In this document: piece after piece, positions 10,455 through 49,293 of the stretch | Numbering within the stretch: position 1 is the first letter of the stretch | How the letters are laid out: the number at the start of each line of letters is the position of its first letter | Assembly (NCBI RefSeq): GCF_000023105.1 | Contig: NC_012669.1 | Coordinates: 3,845,025 to 3,909,024, forward strand | DNA: 64,000 bases | Direction: 5' to 3' | Origin: Beutenbergia cavernae DSM 12333 | GTDB lineage: Bacteria; Actinomycetota; Actinomycetes; Actinomycetales; Beutenbergiaceae | Position numbers and translations under genes: made by a program | Notes under the pieces: model-generated | Database searches by the model: none | What the model saw: the letters and a program-made list of their open reading frames with translations, nothing else | What the model was told of the DNA's origin: nothing

Positions 10455-10838
10455 ATGGCCGACGACGCAAGGGTCCCGCGCGACCTGACCGCGCTCGCCC
10501 GCGCCAGCACGTGCCGGATCGCGACCACGGGCCGCGTCACCGGCCGCGAGCACGTCGCGACCGTCTGGTTCGCGCTCGTCGGGCGCACGCTCTACGCCCC
10601 CTCCAGGCACGGCCTCGACGGCGACTGGCTGCGCAACGTCGTCGCGTCGCCCGACGTCGAGGTGCGACGGCGACGCCGGACCTGGGCCGGCGTCGGCCAC
10701 GTCGTCGTGGAGCCGGACGAGCTCGCCCGCGCCGTCGACGCCCTGGTCACCACGTACGCCCGCTATCGAGAGATCACCGACGCCTGGCGCTCCCACCCAC
10801 CCGTCGTCGTCGGGATCGCGCTCGCGGATCCCGCGTGA
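10455..10838 (+). CDS. Deazaflavin-dependent (F420) nitroreductase/PNPOx-like protein
   Basis: 127 residues. The split-barrel core CRIATTGRVTGREHVATVWFALVGRTLYAPS and the following GDWLRNVVASPDVEVR segment fit the DDN/F420H2-dependent quinone-reductase family common in actinobacteria. The specific substrate is unknown; relatives reduce quinones, nitroaromatics or serve in redox defence. The nearest upstream element is CAGGAT 7 nt before ATG 10455, again without a ribosome binding site. The deazaflavin cofactor assignment rests on family resemblance, and an FMN- or heme-binding relative is the alternative. Confidence 0.75.
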   Translation: MADDARVPRDLTALARASTCRIATTGRVTGREHVATVWFALVGRTLYAPSRHGLDGDWLRNVVASPDVEVRRRRRTWAGVGHVVVEPDELARAVDALVTTYARYREITDAWRSHPPVVVGIALADPA

Positions 10839-10899
10839 GACGCCGGTCCGGCGCCCACCCGCGCGCCACGTTCCCGACCGCCCGACCGAGGAGGCACCC

Positions 10900-11256
10900 G
10901 TGCCCCACCTGAAGCGCTTCGCGATCCTCCTGTACGAGGACGAGTCCGTGTGGGCCGCCGCCACCGACGAGGTGCGGCAGGACCACATGGCACGCCACGA
11001 CGCGTTCTCCGACGCGGTCGGCGCGGCCGGACGGATCGTCTCCGGCGAGGCGCTGAGCACCGTCTCGACGGCGACCACCGTCCGCAACGATCGCGGCGGC
11101 GTCGTCACGAGCGGGCCGTTCGCCGAGCTGACGGAACAGCTCGGCGGCTTCTACGTCGTCGACCTGCCGGACCTCGAGACCGCCGTCGACATCGTCCGGC
11201 TGCTGCCGGCGTACACGGTGGAGATCCGCCCCGTCATGGACGTCGAGGACCTGTAG
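10900..11256 (+). CDS. YciI-like (DGPF) family protein
   Basis: 118 residues. A YCII/DGPF ferredoxin-like fold is indicated by the N-terminal KRFAILLYEDE strand, a central GGVVTSGPFAELTEQLGGFYVVD block (the DGPF element appears here as SGPF), and the C-terminal VEIRPVMD. Start GTG 10900 has a strong GAGGAGG ribosome binding site. Family members are often encoded next to ECF sigma factors or act as small dehalogenase-like enzymes. No partner gene is adjacent here, so the role is open. Confidence 0.8.
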   Translation: MPHLKRFAILLYEDESVWAAATDEVRQDHMARHDAFSDAVGAAGRIVSGEALSTVSTATTVRNDRGGVVTSGPFAELTEQLGGFYVVDLPDLETAVDIVRLLPAYTVEIRPVMDVEDL

Positions 11257-33220: not shown

Positions 33221-33272
33221 CGGCTCCGCACCGACGTCCCGGCGGGCAGACCTGAGCTCGACCGGTCGCCCG

Positions 33273-33490
33273 ACCGTGCGGTTGTTCACCCCAACACCGC
33301 CCGACACGGGACCAACCACACGGTCCGGCCCCGCCCGCACGCCGACCACTCACCCGAGCGTGCGGTTGCTCACCCCAACACCGCCCGACACGGGACCAAC
33401 CACACGGTCCGGCCCCGCCGGCACGCCGACCACTCACCCGACCGTGCGGTTCCTCACCCCAACACCGCCCGACACGGGACCAACCACACG
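33273..33490. repeat. 84-bp tandem repeat, 2.6 copies
   Basis: Copies start at 33273, 33357 and 33441, exactly 84 bp apart. Copies 1 and 2 differ at 3 of 84 positions; copy 3 stops after 50 bp. Each contains CACCCCAACACCGCCCGACA, a CCCG-ACA-CGGG hairpin, and AACCACACGGT, which is the near inverse of the next copy's ACCGTGCGGTT. Confidence 0.95.
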
Positions 33491-33552: not shown

Positions 33553-35463
33553 TCAGCGGGAGCGGCCGCCGCCGCGCTGCGACATCTGCACGATCCCGCC
33601 CGCACGCGAGCCCGACCCCCGACCGCCGGAGGACCCGGAGCGCTGGCCGTTCCGGCCGCCGTTCGAGCCGCCGTAGCCACCCGAGCCGCCGTTGCCACCA
33701 CGGCCACCGGACGAACCCGAACCGCCGTAGCCACCCGAGCCGCCGTTCCCGCCACGGCCGCCGGACGAACCCGAACCGCCGTAGCCACCCGAGCCGCCGT
33801 TCCCGCCGCGACCACCGGACGAACCCGAACCGCCGTAGCCACCGGAGCTGGAGCCGCCCGACGAGCTCGACCACGCGAGGCTCGAGCCGCCGCTGCGCGC
33901 GCCGCGCCCACCGCGCGCGGGACGCTGCCCGGACCGGCCGTCGACGGCGCTGCGCTGGTTGTCGCCGCGGCGAGCGTCGCCCTGGCGCGCACCCCGCTGC
34001 TGGCCGCCGTCACCGGCGGGGCCACCCTGGCCACCGCGACCCTGGCCACGACCCTGGCCGCCGGCGCCGCCGGCGCCGTTGGCGGACGCCCCCGTGGACC
34101 CGCCACGGCGACGACGACCGCGGCCGCCCCCGTCGCGCGCGTCGTCGGACGCCGCACCCCGGCCGCGGCGCGGCTGCGGCGCCGCCGACGGCTTCACCGC
34201 GGCACCCTCGGGCGCCCGAGCCGGGTCGACGCGCGGGGCGACGTCACCGACGAGCGCGCGCACGTCGTCGTCGGACAGCGAGACCCGACGCGGCTGAGCG
34301 CTGATCTTCGCGGCACGCGTGAGCGACCGGACGTCGGAGCGCTGCTCGGGCAGCATGATCGTGACGACGTCGCCGCCGGCGCCCGCGCGGGCCGTGCGAC
34401 CGGACCGGTGCAGGTACGCCTTGTGCTCGGCAGGCGGGTCGACGTGCACGACGAGGTCGACGTCGTCGACGTGGATGCCGCGCGCGGCGATGTCCGTGGC
34501 GACCATGACCTTGAGCTCGCCGGACGTGAACGCCGCGAGGTTCCGCTCGCGGGCGTTCTGCGACAGGTTGCCGTGCAGGTCGGCGGCGGGGATGCCGGAC
34601 TCGGTCAGCTGGCGCGCGAGCTTGCGGGCCTGGTGCTTCGTCCGCATGAAGAGCAGTCGGCGGGTGCTGCCGGACGCGAGCAGCTCGACGAGCTCCCGCT
34701 TCGCGTCGGCGTTCGCCACCTCGAAGATGTGGTGCGTCATGCGGGCGACGGGCGACGACGCCGAGTCCACCGAGTGCGTCAGCGGGTCGCTCAGGTAGCG
34801 CTTGACGAGCACGTCGACGCCGTTGTCCAGCGTCGCGGAGAACAGCATCCGCTGGCCGCCGCGCGGCGTCCGGTCGAGGATCCGCTTCACGCCGGGCAGG
34901 AAGCCGAGGTCGGCCATGTGGTCGGCCTCGTCGAGCACGGTGATCTCGACGGCGTCGAGCGTCAGGAGGCCCTGGCCGAGGAGGTCCTCGAGGCGGCCGG
35001 GGCACGCGACGAGGATGTCGACGCCGTCGTTCAGCGCCGTCACCTGGCGCCCCTGGGACACGCCGCCGAAGATGACGGTCGTGCGCAGGCCGAGCGCCTG
35101 AGCGAGCGGGGTGAGCGTCTCGGAGATCTGGGTGGCGAGCTCACGGGTCGGCGCGAGCACCAGGCCGCGCGGGCGCGCCCGGCCGACGGCGCTGCCGCCG
35201 GCGAGGCGGGCGACCATCGGCAGGGAGAACGCGAGCGTCTTGCCGGAGCCGGTACGGCCCCGGCCGAGCACGTCGCGGCCGGCGAGCGTGTCGGGCAGCG
35301 TCGCCGTCTGGATGGGGAAGGGCATGGTGATGCCGCGCTCGGCGAGGGACCGCGCGAGCGGTCCCGGCACGCCGAGGTCGGAGAACGACGGCGTCGCCTC
35401 CGTCGCGGTGGTGGGCGCCGCCGCGCTGTCGTCGCGCGTGCGGGCAGGGCTGAGTGAAGTCAC
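33553..35463 (-). CDS. DEAD-box RNA helicase with a Gly/Arg-rich repeat tail
   Basis: About 636 residues. The Q motif is in FPIQTATLP; motif I GRTGSGKT; motif Ia APTRELATQ; motif II VLDEADHM (DEAD); motif III FSATL; motif VI HRSGRTARAG. The C-terminal third is basic and then strongly Gly-rich, ending in RGGGRSR. It includes three 18-residue repeats (GGYGGSGSSGGRGGNGGS). Such tails bind RNA and favour condensates. GTG 35463 is the likely start (MTSLSPARTRDD); the frame extends to 35610 without conserved sequence. It probably acts in RNA unwinding at low temperature or in ribosome assembly. Confidence 0.92.
   Translation of the reverse strand: MTSLSPARTRDDSAAAPTTATEATPSFSDLGVPGPLARSLAERGITMPFPIQTATLPDTLAGRDVLGRGRTGSGKTLAFSLPMVARLAGGSAVGRARPRGLVLAPTRELATQISETLTPLAQALGLRTTVIFGGVSQGRQVTALNDGVDILVACPGRLEDLLGQGLLTLDAVEITVLDEADHMADLGFLPGVKRILDRTPRGGQRMLFSATLDNGVDVLVKRYLSDPLTHSVDSASSPVARMTHHIFEVANADAKRELVELLASGSTRRLLFMRTKHQARKLARQLTESGIPAADLHGNLSQNARERNLAAFTSGELKVMVATDIAARGIHVDDVDLVVHVDPPAEHKAYLHRSGRTARAGAGGDVVTIMLPEQRSDVRSLTRAAKISAQPRRVSLSDDDVRALVGDVAPRVDPARAPEGAAVKPSAAPQPRRGRGAASDDARDGGGRGRRRRGGSTGASANGAGGAGGQGRGQGRGGQGGPAGDGGQQRGARQGDARRGDNQRSAVDGRSGQRPARGGRGARSGGSSLAWSSSSGGSSSGGYGGSGSSGGRGGNGGSGGYGGSGSSGGRGGNGGSGGYGGSGSSGGRGGNGGSGGYGGSNGGRNGQRSGSSGGRGSGSRAGGIVQMSQRGGGRSR
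33671..33832. repeat. 54-bp coding repeat, three copies, in the helicase tail
   Basis: Copies begin at 33671, 33725 and 33779 and encode 18-residue Gly/Ser/Arg/Asn units. The period is an exact multiple of three, so copy-number change would keep the frame. Confidence 0.9.
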
Positions 35464-42994: not shown

Positions 42995-43830
42995 TGCGGG
43001 CGCTGGTGACGAACGACGACGGCGTCGCCTCCCCCGGCCTCGCGGTGCTCGCCGACGTGGCCCGCGAGGTGGGCTGCGACGTCGTCGTCGCCGCCCCGAA
43101 CCGCGAGTACTCCGGCGCGAGCGCGTCGCTCATCGGGCACGAGGCAGAGGGTCGGCTGCGGCTCGCCGCGGCCCGGCCGCCCGGGCTGCCAGACGACGTC
43201 CCCGCGTTCGCCGTCCGGGCGGCCCCGGCGCTCATCACGTTCACGGCGTCCTACGGGGCGTTCGGCCCGAAGCCCGACCTCGTGCTGTCCGGGGTGAACC
43301 TCGGCGCGAACACCGGGCACGCCACGCTGCACTCGGGCACGGTCGGGGCAGCGCTGTCGGCGGCGACGCAGGGCATCACGGCGATGGCCGTGTCGATCGC
43401 CTCGCCGGCGCCCCGACACCTCGAGACGGCGCGGGCCTACACCCGGCGGGCGCTGGACTGGCTGCTCGAGCAGCCCCCGCTCGGCGACCGGGTGCTCAAC
43501 CTCAACGTGCCCGACCTCCCGATGGACGCGGTGCGCGGGATGCGCCCGGCCCGGCTCGCGACGTTCGGCGCCGTGCAGGGCCGCGTCAAGGAGAAGGGCC
43601 ACGACTACGTGACGCTCACCTACTCCGGCCTGGGCGCCGGCACCGAGGACGGCAGCGACGCGTTCCTCCTCGCGCGCGGCTGGGCGACGCTCACGCTGCT
43701 GCGGGCGCCGGTGAGCGACGACGCCGGCGTGCAGCTCCCGCGGGTCGACGGGCACCGGGCCGCGGACTGGGTCGACGGCGGCGAGCTCGGCGAGGTCTCG
43801 GCCGGGCGCACGATGTCACCCGGCGCCTGA
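42994..43830 (+). CDS. surE: 5'/3'-nucleotidase SurE
   Basis: 278 residues. The metal-binding TNDDG motif (Asp8, Asp9) starts the protein; the NREYSGASASLIG loop, SGVNLGANTGHATLHSGTVGAA and LNVPDLP are standard SurE features. It dephosphorylates nucleoside monophosphates. The overlap with the kinase gene makes the two co-translated. Confidence 0.95.
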   Translation: MRALVTNDDGVASPGLAVLADVAREVGCDVVVAAPNREYSGASASLIGHEAEGRLRLAAARPPGLPDDVPAFAVRAAPALITFTASYGAFGPKPDLVLSGVNLGANTGHATLHSGTVGAALSAATQGITAMAVSIASPAPRHLETARAYTRRALDWLLEQPPLGDRVLNLNVPDLPMDAVRGMRPARLATFGAVQGRVKEKGHDYVTLTYSGLGAGTEDGSDAFLLARGWATLTLLRAPVSDDAGVQLPRVDGHRAADWVDGGELGEVSAGRTMSPGA

Positions 43831-43842
43831 CTGACCCCTTCG

Positions 43843-43952
43843 CGAGAGGATCCGTGCGCCACCGCGAGAGGATCCGTGCGCCACCCCGAGAGGATCCGTG
43901 CGCCACCGCGAGAGGATCCGTGCGCCACCGCGAGAGGATCTTCGCGGCGTGA
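43843..43952. repeat. 22-bp tandem repeat array A (five copies), between surE and galE
   Basis: Copies begin at 43843, 43865, 43887, 43909 and 43931. The core CGAGAGGATCCGTGCGCCAC is invariant in four of them apart from one base; the fifth decays after CGAGAGGATC. No spacers are present. It is the reverse complement of array B (19 of 22 consensus positions). Confidence 0.95.
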
Positions 43953-43974
43953 CGCCGACGACGACGCCGCGCAT

Positions 43975-44009
43975 GTTCGATCATGGTAGTTTGTGTTCGG
44001 TTTAGTTCG
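43975..44009 (+). promoter_or_regulatory. Three GTTCG repeats upstream of galE
   Basis: GTTCG occurs at 43975, 43995 and 44005, spaced 20 and 10 bp and so on one helix face, in a locally A+T-richer stretch. DeoR-family operators often contain repeated TGTTCG-like units. The galE promoter probably lies here. Confidence 0.4.
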
Positions 44010-44026
44010 AGACGAGAGGACGACTG

Positions 44027-44995
44027 ATGACCTGGCTCGTGACCGGCGGTGCCGGCTACATCGGCGCACACGTGGTGCGGTCGTTCCGCGAGGCGGGCAT
44101 CGACGTCGTCGTGCTCGACGACCTCTCGAGCGGGCACGCGAGCTTCGTGCCCGACGGCGTCCCGTTCGTGCGCGGCACGATCCTCGACACCGCGCTCGTC
44201 GAGCGCACGCTGCGCGAGCACGAGGTGACCGGCGTCGTCCACGTCGCGGCCTTCAAGTACGCCGGAGTCTCCGTGCAGCGCCCCCTCCACACGTACGCCC
44301 AGAACGTCACCGGGACGGCGAGCGTGCTGGAGGCGATGGAGTCGGCCGACGTGGACGCCGTCGTCTTCTCCTCGTCGGCCGCCGTGTACGGGACGCCCGA
44401 GACCGACCTCGTCACGGAGTCGACGCCGACGGCGCCGGAGTCGCCCTACGGCGAGTCGAAGCTCGTCGGCGAGTGGCTGCTGGCCGATGCCGGCCGGGCG
44501 AGCGGGCTCCGCCACACGTCGCTGCGGTACTTCAACGTCGTCGGCTCCGCGTCGCCGGACCTGCCCGACACGAGCCCGCACAACCTGTTCCCGCTGGTCA
44601 TGGACGCCCTCGCGGAGGATCGCACACCGCGCATCAACGGCACCGACTACCCCACGCCGGACGGCACGTGCGTGCGCGACTACGTGCACGTCGCCGACCT
44701 CGCCGCCTCGCACGTCGCCGCCGCCCGCGCCCTGACCGAGGGCTGCACCCTGCAGCCGGTGTACAACCTCGGCAGCGGTGAGGGGGTCTCGGTCCGGCAG
44801 ATCATGGACACGGTGGCCGAGGTCACCGGGATCGCGTTCACGCCCGAGGTGGCGCCACGCCGTCCGGGCGACCCGGCGCGCATCGTCGCCGACGGTTCCG
44901 CCGCCGCCCGCGACATCGACTGGGCGATGCGCCACACGCTCCGCGAGATGGTGGCGAGCGCGTGGGAGGCCCGGGGGGCCGACGACCCCGCCTGA
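44027..44995 (+). CDS. galE: UDP-glucose 4-epimerase
   Basis: 322 residues. The NAD-binding TGGAGYIGAH motif, SSSAAVYG with catalytic Ser, YGESK (YxxxK) and LRYFNVVGS are all present. A GAGAGGA ribosome binding site lies before ATG 44027. It interconverts UDP-glucose and UDP-galactose for cell-wall sugars. It is flanked by inverted 22-bp repeat arrays on both sides. Confidence 0.95.
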   Translation: MTWLVTGGAGYIGAHVVRSFREAGIDVVVLDDLSSGHASFVPDGVPFVRGTILDTALVERTLREHEVTGVVHVAAFKYAGVSVQRPLHTYAQNVTGTASVLEAMESADVDAVVFSSSAAVYGTPETDLVTESTPTAPESPYGESKLVGEWLLADAGRASGLRHTSLRYFNVVGSASPDLPDTSPHNLFPLVMDALAEDRTPRINGTDYPTPDGTCVRDYVHVADLAASHVAAARALTEGCTLQPVYNLGSGEGVSVRQIMDTVAEVTGIAFTPEVAPRRPGDPARIVADGSAAARDIDWAMRHTLREMVASAWEARGADDPA

Positions 44996-45020
44996 GTGAA
45001 CCTGCGCCGCGGTCCGACCG

Positions 45021-45130
45021 CAGAGATCCTCTCGCGGTCGCGCAGAGATCCTCTCGCTGTCGCGCACAGAACCTCTCGCGGTCGCGCAGAGAACCTCTCG
45101 CGGTGGCGCAGAGATCCTCTCGCGGTGGAG
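45021..45130. repeat. 22-bp tandem repeat array B (five copies), between galE and the CDF exporter
   Basis: Copies begin at 45021, 45043, 45065, 45087 and 45109 with core GATCCTCTCGCGGT (ACCTCTCGCGGT in two). The array ends exactly where the CDF stop codon begins, in a convergent intergenic region, and is in inverse orientation to array A. Confidence 0.95.
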
Positions 45131-46033
45131 TCAGGCGTGGACGCCGCGCTCGGTGTGCGTGGCCGGTTCGAGCTGCAGGGTGGAGTGCTCGACGTCGAAG
45201 TGGCCGCGCAAGCAGTGCTGCAGCTCGTCGAGCACGCCGCAGAACCGCGCCGGGTCGAGCACGTCGTCGTCGACGACGACGTGTGCGCTGAGCACCGGCA
45301 CGCCCGAGGTGATCGTCCACGCGTGCAGGTCGTGCACGGCGACGACGCCGGGCACGCCGGCGAGGTGGCGCCGCACGGTGTCGAGCTCCATCTCCTTGGG
45401 CGTGCCCTCGAGCAGCACGCGGGCGACGTCGCGCAGCAGGGAGAACGCGCGGGGCGCGATGAGCACGGCGATCGCGATCGAGGCGACGGCGTCGGCCTGC
45501 ACCCACCCGGTGGTGGCGATCACGAGCGCGGCGGCGATGACCGCCACGGACCCGAGGAGATCGCCGAGCACCTCGAGGTAGGCGCCGCGCACGTTGAGGC
45601 TCTCCTTCTGCCCGGCGGCGAGGAGCCGCAGCGCGACCAGGTTCGCCACGAGTCCGAGCGCGCCGACGGCGAGCATCACCGGTGCCTCGACCTCGCCCGG
45701 CGTGGAGAACCGCCGCAACCCCTCGATGAGCACGGTGACGGCGACGACGGCGAGGATCACCCCGTTCGCCAGGGCGGCGAGCACCTCGGCGCGCTGCCAG
45801 CCGAACGTCCAGCGGTGCGACGTCGGCCGCGCGGCGAGCCACGTCGCGATGAGCGCGAGCGTGAGGCCGGTGGCGTCGGAGAGCATGTGCCCGGCGTCGG
45901 CGAGGAGCGCGAGCGATCCGGTGAGCCACGCCCCGATGACTTCGACGACCATGACCGTGACGGTGATCGCGAGGGCTGCGGCCAGCCGCCCGCGATGCCG
46001 CCCGGACGCCGTCGGCGCGTGCGAGTGACCCAT
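45131..46033 (-). CDS. Cation diffusion facilitator (CDF) metal exporter
   Basis: 300 residues with six membrane spans. The metal-site residues are in LLADAGHMLSDATG (Asp, His, Asp) and the second site in YLEVLGDLLGSV. The C-terminal cytoplasmic domain ends with a His-containing VEHSTLQLEP. The ZitB/CzcD group exports zinc and similar ions. Its ATG overlaps the stop of the ArsR regulator gene by one base. Confidence 0.93.
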   Translation of the reverse strand: MGHSHAPTASGRHRGRLAAALAITVTVMVVEVIGAWLTGSLALLADAGHMLSDATGLTLALIATWLAARPTSHRWTFGWQRAEVLAALANGVILAVVAVTVLIEGLRRFSTPGEVEAPVMLAVGALGLVANLVALRLLAAGQKESLNVRGAYLEVLGDLLGSVAVIAAALVIATTGWVQADAVASIAIAVLIAPRAFSLLRDVARVLLEGTPKEMELDTVRRHLAGVPGVVAVHDLHAWTITSGVPVLSAHVVVDDDVLDPARFCGVLDELQHCLRGHFDVEHSTLQLEPATHTERGVHA

Positions 46034-46398
46034 CAACCGACCCCTTCCGCGTGGCTGTGGACGACGGCGTGGAGCCCGTCCTCGAGCAGCTCCTCCGCCC
46101 GGTGCACGAGTGCGACGAGCGCCGTCGTCGTCAGCGAGTAGTACGTCGACCGCCCCTCGACGCGAGGCGCGACGAGGCCGGCCTCCCGCAGCACCGCGAG
46201 GTGCGCGGACGTGGTCGACTGCGCGAGCCCGACGGCGCCGACGAGGTCGACGACGCGCTGCTCGCCACTCGCGAGGCTGTGCACGATCTGGAGGCGCGCC
46301 GGCTCGCCCAGGGCACGGAAGACCGCGGCGACGGCCTCGTGGTCGTGGCGGTCGCTGACCGGGGCGCAGTCGGCGGCGTCCGCCCGATTCATCGTCAT
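46033..46398 (-). CDS. ArsR/SmtB-family metal-responsive repressor
   Basis: 121 residues. Winged-helix core: FRALGEPARLQIVHSLASGEQRVVDLV, the recognition helix AQSTTSAHLAVLREAGLV and the wing VEGRSTYYSL. Candidate metal ligands are DRHDHE at the N-terminus and HAVVHSHAE at the C-terminus, compatible with alpha-5-type zinc sensing. The -10 box TATCAT (46405-46410) lies 6 nt upstream of ATG 46398. It probably represses itself and the CDF exporter. Confidence 0.92.
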   Translation of the reverse strand: MTMNRADAADCAPVSDRHDHEAVAAVFRALGEPARLQIVHSLASGEQRVVDLVGAVGLAQSTTSAHLAVLREAGLVAPRVEGRSTYYSLTTTALVALVHRAEELLEDGLHAVVHSHAEGVG

Positions 46399-46408
46399 GT
46401 GACGATGA
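46389..46408. promoter_or_regulatory. ArsR operator covering the -10 box and start codon
   Basis: TCATCGTCATGTGACGATGA is a perfect palindrome with 9-bp arms and a TG centre. It covers the arsR start codon and part of the TATCAT -10 box; a second dyad ATCGG-N6-CCGAT follows at 46410-46425. Confidence 0.75.
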
Positions 46409-46498
46409 TATCGGCAGATTCCGATGCCGGCTACACCGCAGCGGCGCCCACGGTGTGGCCTGGCACACGCCGAGGGAATACCGCCGCCCGCGGCGTGC

Positions 46499-46505
46499 TT
46501 AGGTT
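46499..46505 (+). promoter_or_regulatory. Half of a DtxR/IdeR-like iron box
   Basis: TTAGGTT upstream of the binding-protein gene equals one half of the DtxR/IdeR consensus. The second half is poorly conserved, so regulation is doubtful. Confidence 0.2.
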
Positions 46506-46543
46506 TGCTGCAGACGCCCATCCGCCCCACCCGAGGATCGTCC

Positions 46544-48226
46544 GTGCCCCTGCCTGCCCGCCGCTCCGCCGTCCGCCACCCCGCGACGCGACCGGCCGCC
46601 GTCGTCGTCTCCCTCGCCGCTGCACTCGTGCTCGCGGCCTGTTCGTCGGGCACCGACCCGGGCGACGCCGACGCCGGCGACGCCACACCCGTCACCGGCG
46701 GCACCCTCACGTACGCCTCGGGCGACGCGGAGCCGACCTGTCTCGACCCGCACGTCGGCGGCAACTACCCGCAGGCGCTCGTCGCGACGCAGTTCCTCGA
46801 GCCGCTGGTCGGCCGGGACTCGAGCGGCGAGATCACGCCCTGGCTCGCCACCGACTGGGAGGTGAGCGACGACGGCCTGACGTGGGACTTCACGCTCGCG
46901 GACGACGTGTTCTTCCACGACGGCACGCCGCTGGACGCCGCGTCGGTGCAGGCGTCGATCGAGCACCTCCAGGACCCGGCGACGGCGTCCTCCACCGGGT
47001 ACCTCGCCGTCGCCAAGGTCGAGAGCGTGGAGCCCGTCGACACCCAGCACGTGCGCTTCCACCTCAGCGCCCCGGACAGCGCCCTGCTGGAGTCGCTCTC
47101 GCAGCCGTGGACGGCGATCCAGGCCGCCTCCGGTCTCGCGCGCAGCCAGGAGGAGAACTGCGCGGCACCCATCGGCACCGGCCCGTTCCAGGTGACGGAC
47201 TGGGTCACGCAGGACCACGTGGAGCTGACCCGCTACGAGGGGTACACGTCGCCGCCCGCGGATGCGGAGCACGACGGCGCCGCGTACCTCGATCGCATCG
47301 TGTGGCGGTTCATCCCCGACTCGGCCACGCGCTACGCCGCGCTCGTCGCCGGCGACGTCGACGTCATCGACAACGCACAGCCCGACACGATCGCCCAGGC
47401 CGAGAACGACGACGCGATCGAGCACCTCGACGCGCCCCGACCCGGGTCCGTCAACCGCCTCGAGCTCAACAGCGGCCGCGCACCGTTCGACGACGTCCGC
47501 GTCCGCGAGGCGTTCCTCCATGCTGCCGAGGTCGACCCGGGCATCGAGAGCCTGTTCTTCTCCACGGCGACGCGCTCGCACTCGCCGCTGTCGAGCGTCG
47601 AGTCGATGGCCGTGAGCGACGAGGACCCGCTCCCGTACGACCCGGACGCCGCCGCGGCCCTGCTGGACGAGGCCGGCTGGGTGGTGGGTTCCGACGGCGT
47701 GCGCGTGCGCGACGGCGAGCGCCTCACCGTGCGGATCCCGGTCAGCACGAACCAGTCCATCCCCGCCGAGGTCTCGCTGCTGGAACAGATCCAGGCGTCG
47801 GCGCGCGAGGTCGGCTTCGACGTGCAGCTGGACCTGCTCGACCTCTCGAGCTGGTACGCCGCCCTCGCCGCCGACGACTACGAGGCCGTCACCGCGCCGT
47901 ACACGAAGGTCGGCCCCGACGTCCTGCGGATCCTCTACCACTCGGACGGCATCGTCCCCGCGCCCAGCGGGTACTTCGCCAACCTGTCGCAGGTCGCGCT
48001 CCCGGAGCTCGATGCCCTGCTCGACGAGGCGTCGCTCGAGACCGACACCGACGCGCGCGCGCAGCTGTACGCCGAGGCCCAGCGCCTCGTGCTCGAGGGC
48101 CGCTACATCCTGCCCCTCTACGACCAGCAGAACCACTTCCTCTACCGGTCCGACGTCCGGGGCCTGCGGGCGCTCGCCACCGTGTCGACGCCCACGTTCG
48201 CTGACGCGTGGCTCGCCCAGGGGTGA
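46544..48226 (+). CDS. ABC transporter substrate-binding lipoprotein, family 5
   Basis: 560 residues. A signal with lipobox (SLAAALVLAAC, then SSGTDPGDADAGD linker) precedes a family-5 fold: LTYASGDAEPTCLDPHVGGNY, TDWEVSDDGLTWDFTLADDVFFHDGTP. GTG 46544 is chosen because GAGGAT lies 5 nt before it. It heads a second dpp-type importer. The ligand is unknown; peptides, metal chelates or siderophore-like compounds are possible. Confidence 0.92.
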   Translation: MPLPARRSAVRHPATRPAAVVVSLAAALVLAACSSGTDPGDADAGDATPVTGGTLTYASGDAEPTCLDPHVGGNYPQALVATQFLEPLVGRDSSGEITPWLATDWEVSDDGLTWDFTLADDVFFHDGTPLDAASVQASIEHLQDPATASSTGYLAVAKVESVEPVDTQHVRFHLSAPDSALLESLSQPWTAIQAASGLARSQEENCAAPIGTGPFQVTDWVTQDHVELTRYEGYTSPPADAEHDGAAYLDRIVWRFIPDSATRYAALVAGDVDVIDNAQPDTIAQAENDDAIEHLDAPRPGSVNRLELNSGRAPFDDVRVREAFLHAAEVDPGIESLFFSTATRSHSPLSSVESMAVSDEDPLPYDPDAAAALLDEAGWVVGSDGVRVRDGERLTVRIPVSTNQSIPAEVSLLEQIQASAREVGFDVQLDLLDLSSWYAALAADDYEAVTAPYTKVGPDVLRILYHSDGIVPAPSGYFANLSQVALPELDALLDEASLETDTDARAQLYAEAQRLVLEGRYILPLYDQQNHFLYRSDVRGLRALATVSTPTFADAWLAQG

Positions 48227-49293
48227 GCCCTCGCGCGGCGCGCGGAGATCCTCTCGCGGATGCGCGCACATCCTCTCGCGGTCGCGCCGATCACCTCTCG
48301 GGGAGGGGTCGGGGCACCGCGGGGTCCGGCGCCCGCGCCGCGCGCGGCACCCCCGCCGTCCGGGGCGTCCGGGCGGTCGCGTGGCGGCTGGCCGGCGCCG
48401 TCGGCGTCCTGTGGGCGGCCGCGACGGTCACGTTCGTCGCCATCCGGACCGTGCCCGGTGACCCGGCCCAGGCGATCCTCGGCGGGCCGGGCTCCCAGGC
48501 GTCGGCCGAGGCGCTCGCGCAGGCTCGCGCCGACCACGGCCTCGACCGGCCCGTGCTCGAGCAGTACCTCGCCTACCTCGGACGGCTCGTCCGCGGTGAC
48601 CTCGGGACGTCCTACGCCAGGCGCACGCCCGTGGCGGAGCTCATCGGCGACCAGCTGCCCGGGACGCTCACCCTCGCGGCCCTCGCGCTGGTGCTCGCGT
48701 GGGCGCTCGCGCTCGTCTCCCTCCTGGTGACCACGCGACAGCGGGGCGGCTGGGACGCCGTCGGGAACGCGATCGACACGTTCGCCGCCGCACTCCCCGC
48801 CTACTGGCTGGGCGCCGTCGGAATCCTCGTGTTCAGCACGTGGCTCGGGTGGCTCCCGGCCATCGCCGGGCAGAGCGCGGCGAGCCTCGTGCTGCCGACC
48901 CTGACGCTCGCGATCCCGCTGGCCGGCTTCCTCGCCCAGTCCATGCGCGAGACGCTGACCGACAGCCTGCACGCGCCCTACACGCTGTCGGCGCGGGCAC
49001 GCGGCGAGGGCGAGGCGGGCGTGCGCCTGCGGCACAGCATCCGCCACGCGAGCCTGCCGGGCATCGCGCTGTCCGGCTGGGCGCTCGGTCACCTCGTCGG
49101 GGGCGCCGTCGTCGTCGAGACGATCTTCGCGCGGCCGGGCCTGGGCCGGACGCTCGTCGCGGCGGTGACGGCGCGGGACGTGCCGCTGGTCACCGGCGTG
49201 GTCCTCGTCTCGGCGCTCGCGTACGTCGTCGTCACGATCGTGGCTGACGCCGTCACGCGCCTCGCGGACCCGCGTCCGGAGGCCGCCCGATGA
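48223..49293 (+). CDS. ABC transporter permease (DppB-like) with a repeat-derived N-terminal extension
   Basis: 356 residues. From about residue 50 it is a normal DppB permease: AGAVGVLWAAATVTFVAIRTVPGDPAQ, then GLDRPVLEQYLAYLGRLVRGDLGTSY. The preceding Arg/Gly-rich about 45 residues include translated 22-bp repeats (array C). GTG 48223 overlaps the binding-protein stop as GTGA and there is no later in-frame ATG or GTG before the first membrane span. The extension is thus most likely translated. Confidence 0.88.
   Translation: MSPRAARGDPLADARTSSRGRADHLSGRGRGTAGSGARAARGTPAVRGVRAVAWRLAGAVGVLWAAATVTFVAIRTVPGDPAQAILGGPGSQASAEALAQARADHGLDRPVLEQYLAYLGRLVRGDLGTSYARRTPVAELIGDQLPGTLTLAALALVLAWALALVSLLVTTRQRGGWDAVGNAIDTFAAALPAYWLGAVGILVFSTWLGWLPAIAGQSAASLVLPTLTLAIPLAGFLAQSMRETLTDSLHAPYTLSARARGEGEAGVRLRHSIRHASLPGIALSGWALGHLVGGAVVVETIFARPGLGRTLVAAVTARDVPLVTGVVLVSALAYVVVTIVADAVTRLADPRPEAAR
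48243..48304. repeat. 22-bp tandem repeat array C (three copies) inside a permease gene
   Basis: Three copies with the conserved CCTCTCG at 48250, 48272 and 48294, 22 bp apart, in the same orientation as array B. It lies in the 5' coding part of the DppB-like gene. Confidence 0.85.

What the first reader, a model, noticed from the sequence alone, without database searches (positions are those of the whole stretch)
43843..48304. Three arrays of one exact 22-bp tandem repeat within 4.5 kb
Arrays A (43843-43952, five copies), B (45021-45130, five copies) and C (48243-48304, three copies) share the core GATCCTCTCGCGGT at a strict 22-bp period (about two helical turns). There are no spacers and no known repeat family comes to mind. 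The tight clustering and constant period suggest either repeated protein-binding sites or a mobile mini-repeat. This is the least explained structure of the window.
Basis: partly seen in the sequence, partly recalled or inferred. Interest (0 to 1): 0.75.

Follow-up and report, generated by a model that had tools for sequence, protein, structure and literature searches.

The report
Dispersed repeats paired with a nuclease
The three repeat arrays are scattered copies of a short DNA sequence that also flanks, on both sides, a nuclease gene elsewhere in the same chromosome; nuclease and repeat change together from species to species, which points to an undescribed system that spreads or maintains short repeats in actinobacteria.

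Summary
The window holds three of more than 55 arrays of a 22-bp unit (CGCGAGAGG-N6-GC...) dispersed over the Beutenbergia cavernae chromosome (164 exact adjacent-unit pairs; control 0). Arrays sit in 3' intergenic DNA and are rare between divergent genes (2 of 93 such gaps).

The explanation lies outside the window. Two nuclease genes (AbiEi-like DNA-binding domain plus Vsr/DUF559-type nuclease domain) are each flanked by outward-facing arrays of this unit. All ten close homologues examined in six related genomes, and 24 of 30 class-wide homologues, are flanked by inverted copies of a repeat (random genes: 2 of 134). At one orthologous locus in five genomes the nuclease is conserved but the repeat differs in each, while left and right arrays still match. 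Two predictions held: the repeat beside a nuclease is dispersed in that genome only (75 copies in G008, 63 in G911, 0 in controls). No RAYT-type (Y1) transposase was found.

Best reading: a REP/RAYT-like arrangement built on a non-homologous nuclease, the arrays being its dispersed non-autonomous repeats. Association and co-evolution are shown; binding, cleavage and mobility are inferred.

The parts
43841..43946 (+). Array A: five 22-bp units CGCGAGAGGATCCGTGCGCCAC in sense orientation on the + strand (last unit partial); its CGCG end abuts the surE stop codon (43828-43830) after a CCCCTT leader (43835-43840)
45017..45126 (-). Array B: five units in sense orientation on the - strand; CGCG end abuts the stop codon of the cation-efflux gene (45131-46033, -)
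48239..48304 (-). Array C: two good units and one decayed unit (CCCGAGAGGTGATC...) between the ABC substrate-binding protein gene and the permease gene; one of the minority whose CGCG end does not point at a stop codon
42994..43830 (+). surE-like gene (PF01975), upstream of array A
44027..44995 (+). NAD-dependent epimerase gene (PF01370), lying between the outward-facing arrays A and B
45131..46033 (-). cation-efflux transporter gene (PF01545), its 3' end abutting array B

Best explanation
The arrays are dispersed copies of the repeat that flanks, in inverted (outward) orientation, the chromosomal genes of an AbiEi-Vsr-type nuclease family. Shown: (1) the same 22-bp unit flanks two nuclease paralogues in this genome, at 1,939,319-1,940,227 and 1,992,084-1,992,986; (2) flanking by matched inverted repeats is general for this nuclease family in the class Actinomycetes; (3) the repeat changes together with the genome's nuclease, and the flanking repeat predicts which repeat is dispersed in that genome. 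Inferred: the AbiEi-like winged-helix domain binds the units, several side by side at two-helical-turn spacing; the nuclease domain cuts or nicks at the arrays; repair or copying then spreads arrays to new sites, and they persist in 3' intergenic DNA where they do least harm. The nuclease gene with its two arrays is the source unit; the arrays of the window are non-autonomous copies, as REP/REPIN elements are to RAYT genes, but with an unrelated enzyme.
For: Genome-wide family, 196 units in 55 arrays read. A gene between outward arrays in G005 and its orthologue between outward arrays in G000 are the same nuclease. Close homologues (E<1e-50) occur in six of 24 family genomes, and all ten loci examined carry outward arrays of 21-22 bp on both sides. 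The CG-GAG end points outward in the loci of close homologues printed. A Nocardioidaceae contig found from the array pattern alone (L139) encodes the nuclease, flanked by its own 22-bp arrays. Class-wide: 24 of 30 homologues have flanking inverted repeats above the random-gene 99th percentile, against 2 of 134 random genes (Fisher p = 5e-21); the direct orientation is much weaker. Orthologous nuclease locus in G004, G005, G008, G013, G017 (flanks 71-94% identical) with a different repeat in each. Predictions met: the unit beside a G008 nuclease occurs 75 times in G008 and 0 times in seven other genomes; the 26-bp unit beside the G911 nuclease occurs 63 times in G911 and 0 times in nine genomes, seven of them from its own genus. 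An array locus of G017 is empty at the orthologous site in G008. Catalytic E-D-ExDG residues nearly invariant in 64 homologues. AbiEi is known to bind inverted repeats of up to 23 bp at its own promoter (PMC3985639).
Against: No direct evidence of DNA binding, cleavage or movement. No target-site duplication was recognised. The nuclease is nearly absent from phages and plasmids and vertically inherited at a conserved locus, so it does not behave like an ordinary transposase. Six of 30 class-wide homologues lacked a detectable flanking repeat (two of these loci were truncated). The empty site could equally be a loss. The AlphaFold model from a single sequence was useless (pLDDT 39), so the domain assignment rests on profile matches.
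Confidence: 0.62

Rival explanations
1. The arrays are transcription-termination or 3'-UTR elements that insulate genes; the nuclease gene merely carries strong ones on both sides.
For: 3' location and depletion between divergent genes (2 of 40 array-bearing intergenic regions against 91 of 230 without, p = 4e-6); CGCG end usually 2-20 bp from a stop codon; eight back-to-back arrays fold as extremely stable hairpins (z -5 to -16).
Against: 38 one-directional arrays do not fold clearly better than shuffles (mean z -0.75) and lack a U-tract. Most genes have no array. The sequence differs completely between related species and tracks the nuclease, which termination would not require.
Confidence: 0.13
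2. The arrays are operators: the AbiEi-like domain autoregulates the nuclease gene from the flanking arrays, and dispersed arrays are decoys or a regulon, spread by other means.
For: AbiEi autoregulates by binding inverted repeats at its own promoter (PMC3985639); the unit has two conserved blocks about one helical turn apart.
Against: Arrays lie on both sides of the gene, including downstream, and dispersed arrays avoid promoter regions.
Confidence: 0.12
3. The nuclease is a homing endonuclease that inserted into pre-existing arrays; the arrays spread independently of it.
For: The nearest solved structures by profile are an endonuclease-like protein (3hrl) and the mobile-intron protein 3r3p, both weak; the gene sits where the centre of a back-to-back array would be.
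Against: The dispersed unit was found only in genomes whose nuclease carries that unit, and at an orthologous locus the flanking repeat is replaced while the gene stays.
Confidence: 0.1
4. Simple slippage-generated tandem repeats without a functional partner.
For: Units within an array are homogenised, as slippage or unequal exchange would do.
Against: More than 50 dispersed loci share the unit, with fixed polarity and a partner gene; slippage cannot disperse repeats.
Confidence: 0.03

Closest known systems
REP/REPIN elements with REP-associated tyrosine transposases (RAYTs)
   Same: One or few chromosomal enzyme genes flanked by two inverted copies of a short repeat that is also dispersed in extragenic space, with several repeat classes per genome matching several enzyme paralogues (PMC2817692, PMC3116915)
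   Different: The enzyme is an AbiEi-Vsr/DUF559-type nuclease, not an HUH Y1 transposase (none in six genomes); the unit is a tandem direct repeat of 21-26 bp, not a GTAG- or CGTC-tagged palindrome
AbiE type IV toxin-antitoxin systems (AbiEi antitoxin)
   Same: AbiEi-like N-terminal domains; AbiEi binds repeats up to 23 bp long (PMC3985639)
   Different: Fused to a nuclease domain; in the array-bounded cassettes read no second gene accompanies it
Vsr-like homing endonucleases and DUF559 nucleases
   Same: Conserved E...D...ExDG...DxxR core; weak profile match to mobile-intron protein 3r3p
   Different: Not inside an intron or intein; flanked by its own tandem arrays; vertically inherited at one locus
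Mycobacterial interspersed repetitive units (MIRUs)
   Same: Actinobacterial tandem repeats in intergenic DNA near stop codons (from general knowledge)
   Different: MIRU units are several times longer and have no partner enzyme that I know of

Membership tests
REP/RAYT | HUH-type Y1 (IS200/IS605-like) transposase gene | tested here: not met
   PF01797 absent from G000, G005, G008, G017, G004 and G013, with five control genomes ringing
REP/RAYT | enzyme gene flanked by two inverted repeats of the dispersed family | tested here: met
   met with a different enzyme: ten of ten close homologues, 24 of 30 class-wide
REP/RAYT | repeat is an imperfect palindrome with a GTAG or CGTC tag | tested here: not met
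   unit CGCGAGAGG-N6-GC is not palindromic and carries no such tag
REP/RAYT | repeat dispersed in extragenic space at high copy | tested here: met
AbiE toxin-antitoxin | AbiEi-like protein | tested here: met
   PADLOC AbiEi profiles match the N-terminal two thirds of all eight proteins tried; Pfam AbiEi_1 and AbiEi_4 in about a third of 30 members each
AbiE toxin-antitoxin | adjacent AbiEii nucleotidyltransferase toxin | tested here: not met
   the nuclease is the only gene between the arrays in L071 and L174; other loci not checked gene by gene
Vsr-like/DUF559 nuclease | catalytic-core residues E, D, ExDG, R | tested here: met
   E202, R206, E245, G248, R264 invariant and D234, D247 nearly so in 30 aligned homologues
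Vsr-like/DUF559 nuclease | DNA cleavage activity | not testable with these tools
   needs an experiment; structure prediction failed
Tn7/Mu-like transposons (ends with multiple sites of about 22 bp) | DDE transposase and core genes between the ends | tested here: not met
   genes between outward array pairs are the nuclease alone or ordinary genes; no DDE profile search was run on every gene
CRISPR | repeats separated by unique spacers | tested here: not met
   units abut; linkers fall into a few homogenised classes
intrinsic terminator | stable RNA hairpin followed by a U-tract | tested here: inconclusive
   strong hairpin only in back-to-back arrays; one-directional arrays hardly better than shuffles

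The most novel reading that the evidence does not exclude
A new class of bacterial repeat-spreading system: chromosomal AbiEi-Vsr-type nucleases, vertically inherited and common in Actinomycetes (180 of 247 genomes sampled have a homologue), each recognise and propagate their own short tandem repeat, so that every lineage carries its own dispersed repeat family co-evolving with its nuclease, parallel to but independent of REP/RAYT.
Probability: 0.5. Interest if true: 0.9.

Novelty: categorically new. Interest (0 to 1): 0.8.

Why it matters
As far as I could find, dispersed intergenic repeats of actinobacteria have had no explanation of the REP/RAYT kind. If a DNA-binding nuclease of a different superfamily does the same job, the RAYT-REP relationship has a convergent counterpart. 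It would also give a function to a very common gene family annotated only as DUF559 or AbiEi-like, and yield lineage-specific DNA-binding specificities that can be read directly from the genome, because the repeat beside the gene is the candidate site.

Tried and rejected
RNA structure of the unit: rejected for one-directional arrays. Literature searches for the repeat core and for the GTGATCATGCA unit gave only chance matches such as primers; searches for tandem repeats in Beutenbergia and for DUF559/AbiEi with repeats found no description; only open-access papers are held. Viral contigs hold nine single-pair matches to the array pattern, not pursued beyond a check that none encodes the nuclease. 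A phylum-wide search for the window's unit found only chance-level singletons outside the genome itself, because the repeat sequence is lineage-specific. DNA-uptake-sequence and CRISPR ideas were dropped on anatomy. An early orientation rule ('CGCG end points at the stop codon') is a tendency but weak where it can be tested fairly: among codirectional gene pairs 15 obey and 7 do not, and it is partly a consequence of arrays filling short convergent gaps. The single-sequence AlphaFold model was too poor to search with.

Full report
OBSERVATION. The three arrays exist at the stated places with a strict 22-bp period. Array A reads in the opposite direction to B and C, and the units are variants rather than exact copies. 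The window's genome is 4,669,183 bp in one contig, the size published for Beutenbergia cavernae HKI 0122T/DSM 12333 (PMC3035217); I take it to be that genome.

GENOME-WIDE FAMILY. The 14-bp core occurs 131 times at up to one mismatch (reversed-pattern control 12). Pairs of CTCTCGCG exactly 22 bp apart occur 164 times (control 0). In the roughly 0.6 Mb read, mostly around hits, there are 55 arrays with 196 units, two to eight per array. In sense, positions 1-9 read CGCGAGAGG (the first eight were the search seed), position 16 is G in 195 of 196 units and position 17 is C in 180; the rest is variable but homogenised within an array. No single-copy unit was seen in intergenic DNA of the stretches read.

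PLACEMENT. Of intergenic regions of at least 60 bp, array-bearing ones are 20 codirectional, 18 convergent and 2 divergent; the others are 120, 19 and 91 (p = 4e-6 for divergent against the rest, p = 2.5e-5 for convergent against codirectional). Most of this DNA was fetched because it holds arrays, and genes were called by a simple codon-usage predictor of my own, so these numbers are indicative. The CGCG end usually lies 2-20 bp from a stop codon after a C-rich leader, typically TGA-CCCTT-CGCGAGAGG. In back-to-back arrays the CGCG ends always point outward, and the two arms are often reverse complements even in the variable linkers.

THE PARTNER GENE. Comparing genes beside arrays in this genome with those beside arrays in a related genus (G005) gave one clear shared gene, flanked by outward arrays in both. 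It encodes about 303 residues with AbiEi-like N-terminal domains (PADLOC and Pfam profiles) and a C-terminal nuclease domain of the REase_MTES_1575/DUF559 (Vsr-like) type. In 30 aligned homologues E202, R206, E245, G248 and R264 are invariant and D234 and D247 nearly so. The best profile matches in the PDB are weak: 3hrl (endonuclease-like protein, E 0.05) and 3r3p (mobile intron protein, E 0.07).

THE ASSOCIATION IS GENERAL. Close homologues (E < 1e-50) occur in six of 24 genomes of the family. Each of the ten loci examined carries outward-facing tandem arrays of 21-22 bp on both sides, every lineage with its own version: CGCGAGGCCYTTCGGGYCC.. and CGGCGAGGGGYTTCTGCAC.. (G008), CGCGAGGTGGTTCTGCAGGCAC (G004), CGCGAGGTCCTTTCGGGCGTC (G013), CGCGAGAGACTTCGGGACGTC and GCGAGAGGATTGCTGACCCTC (G017), CGCGAGAGGAAGTCCGTCCTTT (G005), and the window's unit (G000). 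Polarity is constant: the CG-GAG end points outward. More distant homologues in other genera are often flanked by inverted repeats too (scores 51-79 in eight genomes; 99th percentile of random genes 42). In the class-wide sample, 24 of 30 homologues exceed that level against 2 of 134 random genes, one of which is the window's epimerase gene between arrays A and B (p = 5e-21). The median score of matched flanks is 68, of mismatched flanks 24, and of the direct-repeat orientation 25.5; a few mismatched pairs score high because different genomes share a motif. Two of three annotated plasmid-collection homologues checked are also flanked by inverted repeats (Tsukamurella tyrosinosolvens 95, Arthrobacter sp. 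ERGS1:01 54; Nonomuraea 29, not). Independently, a Nocardioidaceae contig picked up by the array pattern alone (L139) proved to encode the nuclease with its own 22-bp arrays on both sides.

CO-EVOLUTION. DNA on both sides of the nuclease shows one orthologous locus in G004, G008, G013 and G017 (73-94% identity), and in G005 on the one side available (71-76%); a second locus is shared by G017 and G008. The gene has stayed in place while the repeat was replaced in each lineage, yet left and right arrays still match. In G000 the two paralogues carry two linker classes (TGCG-type at 1,939,319; GTGGCCC-type at 1,992,084), and both classes occur among the dispersed arrays (29 arrays purely of the first, 9 purely of the second).

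PREDICTIONS TESTED. If the repeat beside a nuclease is the one its genome disperses, the G008 unit should be scattered in G008 and absent elsewhere: 75 paired matches against 0 in seven genomes, including its congeners G013 and G017. The same held in a different family: the 26-bp unit beside the G911 nuclease gave 63 matches in G911 and 0 in nine others, seven from its own genus. These two units were chosen because their arrays were clear; I made no other such test.

FILLED AND EMPTY SITE. A G017 array lies between two genes whose orthologues in G008 and G013 are adjacent; G008 has only about 40 bp there, G013 a different short repeat. This shows gain or loss within a genus but not its direction.

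NOT RAYT. No Y1 transposase was found in the six genomes, while the control genomes rang. The nuclease has no match in 50,697 phage records and weak matches in eight plasmid records, consistent with chromosomal, vertical inheritance.

MECHANISM. Shown: shared repeats, flanking polarity, co-evolution and genome-specific dispersal. From the literature: AbiEi binds inverted repeats of up to 23 bp (PMC3985639). Inferred: the nuclease binds several units side by side and cuts there; repair or copying spreads arrays; survivors are those in 3' intergenic DNA. Back-to-back arrays would form strong hairpins and may also terminate transcription, but one-directional arrays are not structured.

NOVELTY. 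The arrangement works like REP/RAYT, but fails two defining features of it (enzyme superfamily, tagged palindrome), and no description was found in the open-access literature searched. It is rated categorically new on that basis; an unseen earlier description would change this.

LIMITS. Only stretches of the genomes were read; gene calls are approximate; class-wide loci are the best-scoring homologues; literature coverage is open-access only; the structure prediction failed. Whether the enzyme moves the repeats, merely binds them, or protects them is open.

Noticed in passing
L062:8271-8380 (genome about 818274) and L055:8345-8423: A second dispersed palindromic family in B. cavernae (CGAACCTCGCACTTCACGTCGAACCTCGCAC.../...GTGCGAGGTTCG) lies directly downstream of another AbiEi-nuclease paralogue; similar copies in L084, L093, L063 and L066.
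   Followed up: partly
L248, around the paralogue at genome 715511-716275: Hairpin GGGTGC(G/A)(T/C)CTGGTGACCACATGGGTCACCAGACGCACCC on both sides of a further nuclease paralogue, with related copies in five other stretches of the genome.
   Followed up: partly
L092 about 10803-11060 (genome about 210801): Tandem series of a perfect hairpin TACGTCACTGATCC-ACCCAGC-GGATCAGTGACGTA in a convergent intergenic region; no nuclease seen beside it.
   Followed up: no
L272, L273, L275, L277, L281, L286, L289: The flanking repeats of nuclease homologues in seven Actinomycetes genomes share an ATCATGCA motif, suggesting one widespread specificity class.
   Followed up: no
L188:6583-6658 (G017): A palindromic sequence (CGAGTTCGGGGCCGAG.../...CTCGGCCCCGAACTCG) that matches many places in both orientations in the congener G013.
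   Followed up: no
G005 contig ends (C59, C60, C74): Assembly contigs of G005 end inside or within a few bases of these arrays, so draft genomes will under-count them.
   Followed up: no
window 33269-33490 and 33664-33848: Two further tandem arrays (84-bp and 54-bp units) with unrelated sequence.
   Followed up: no
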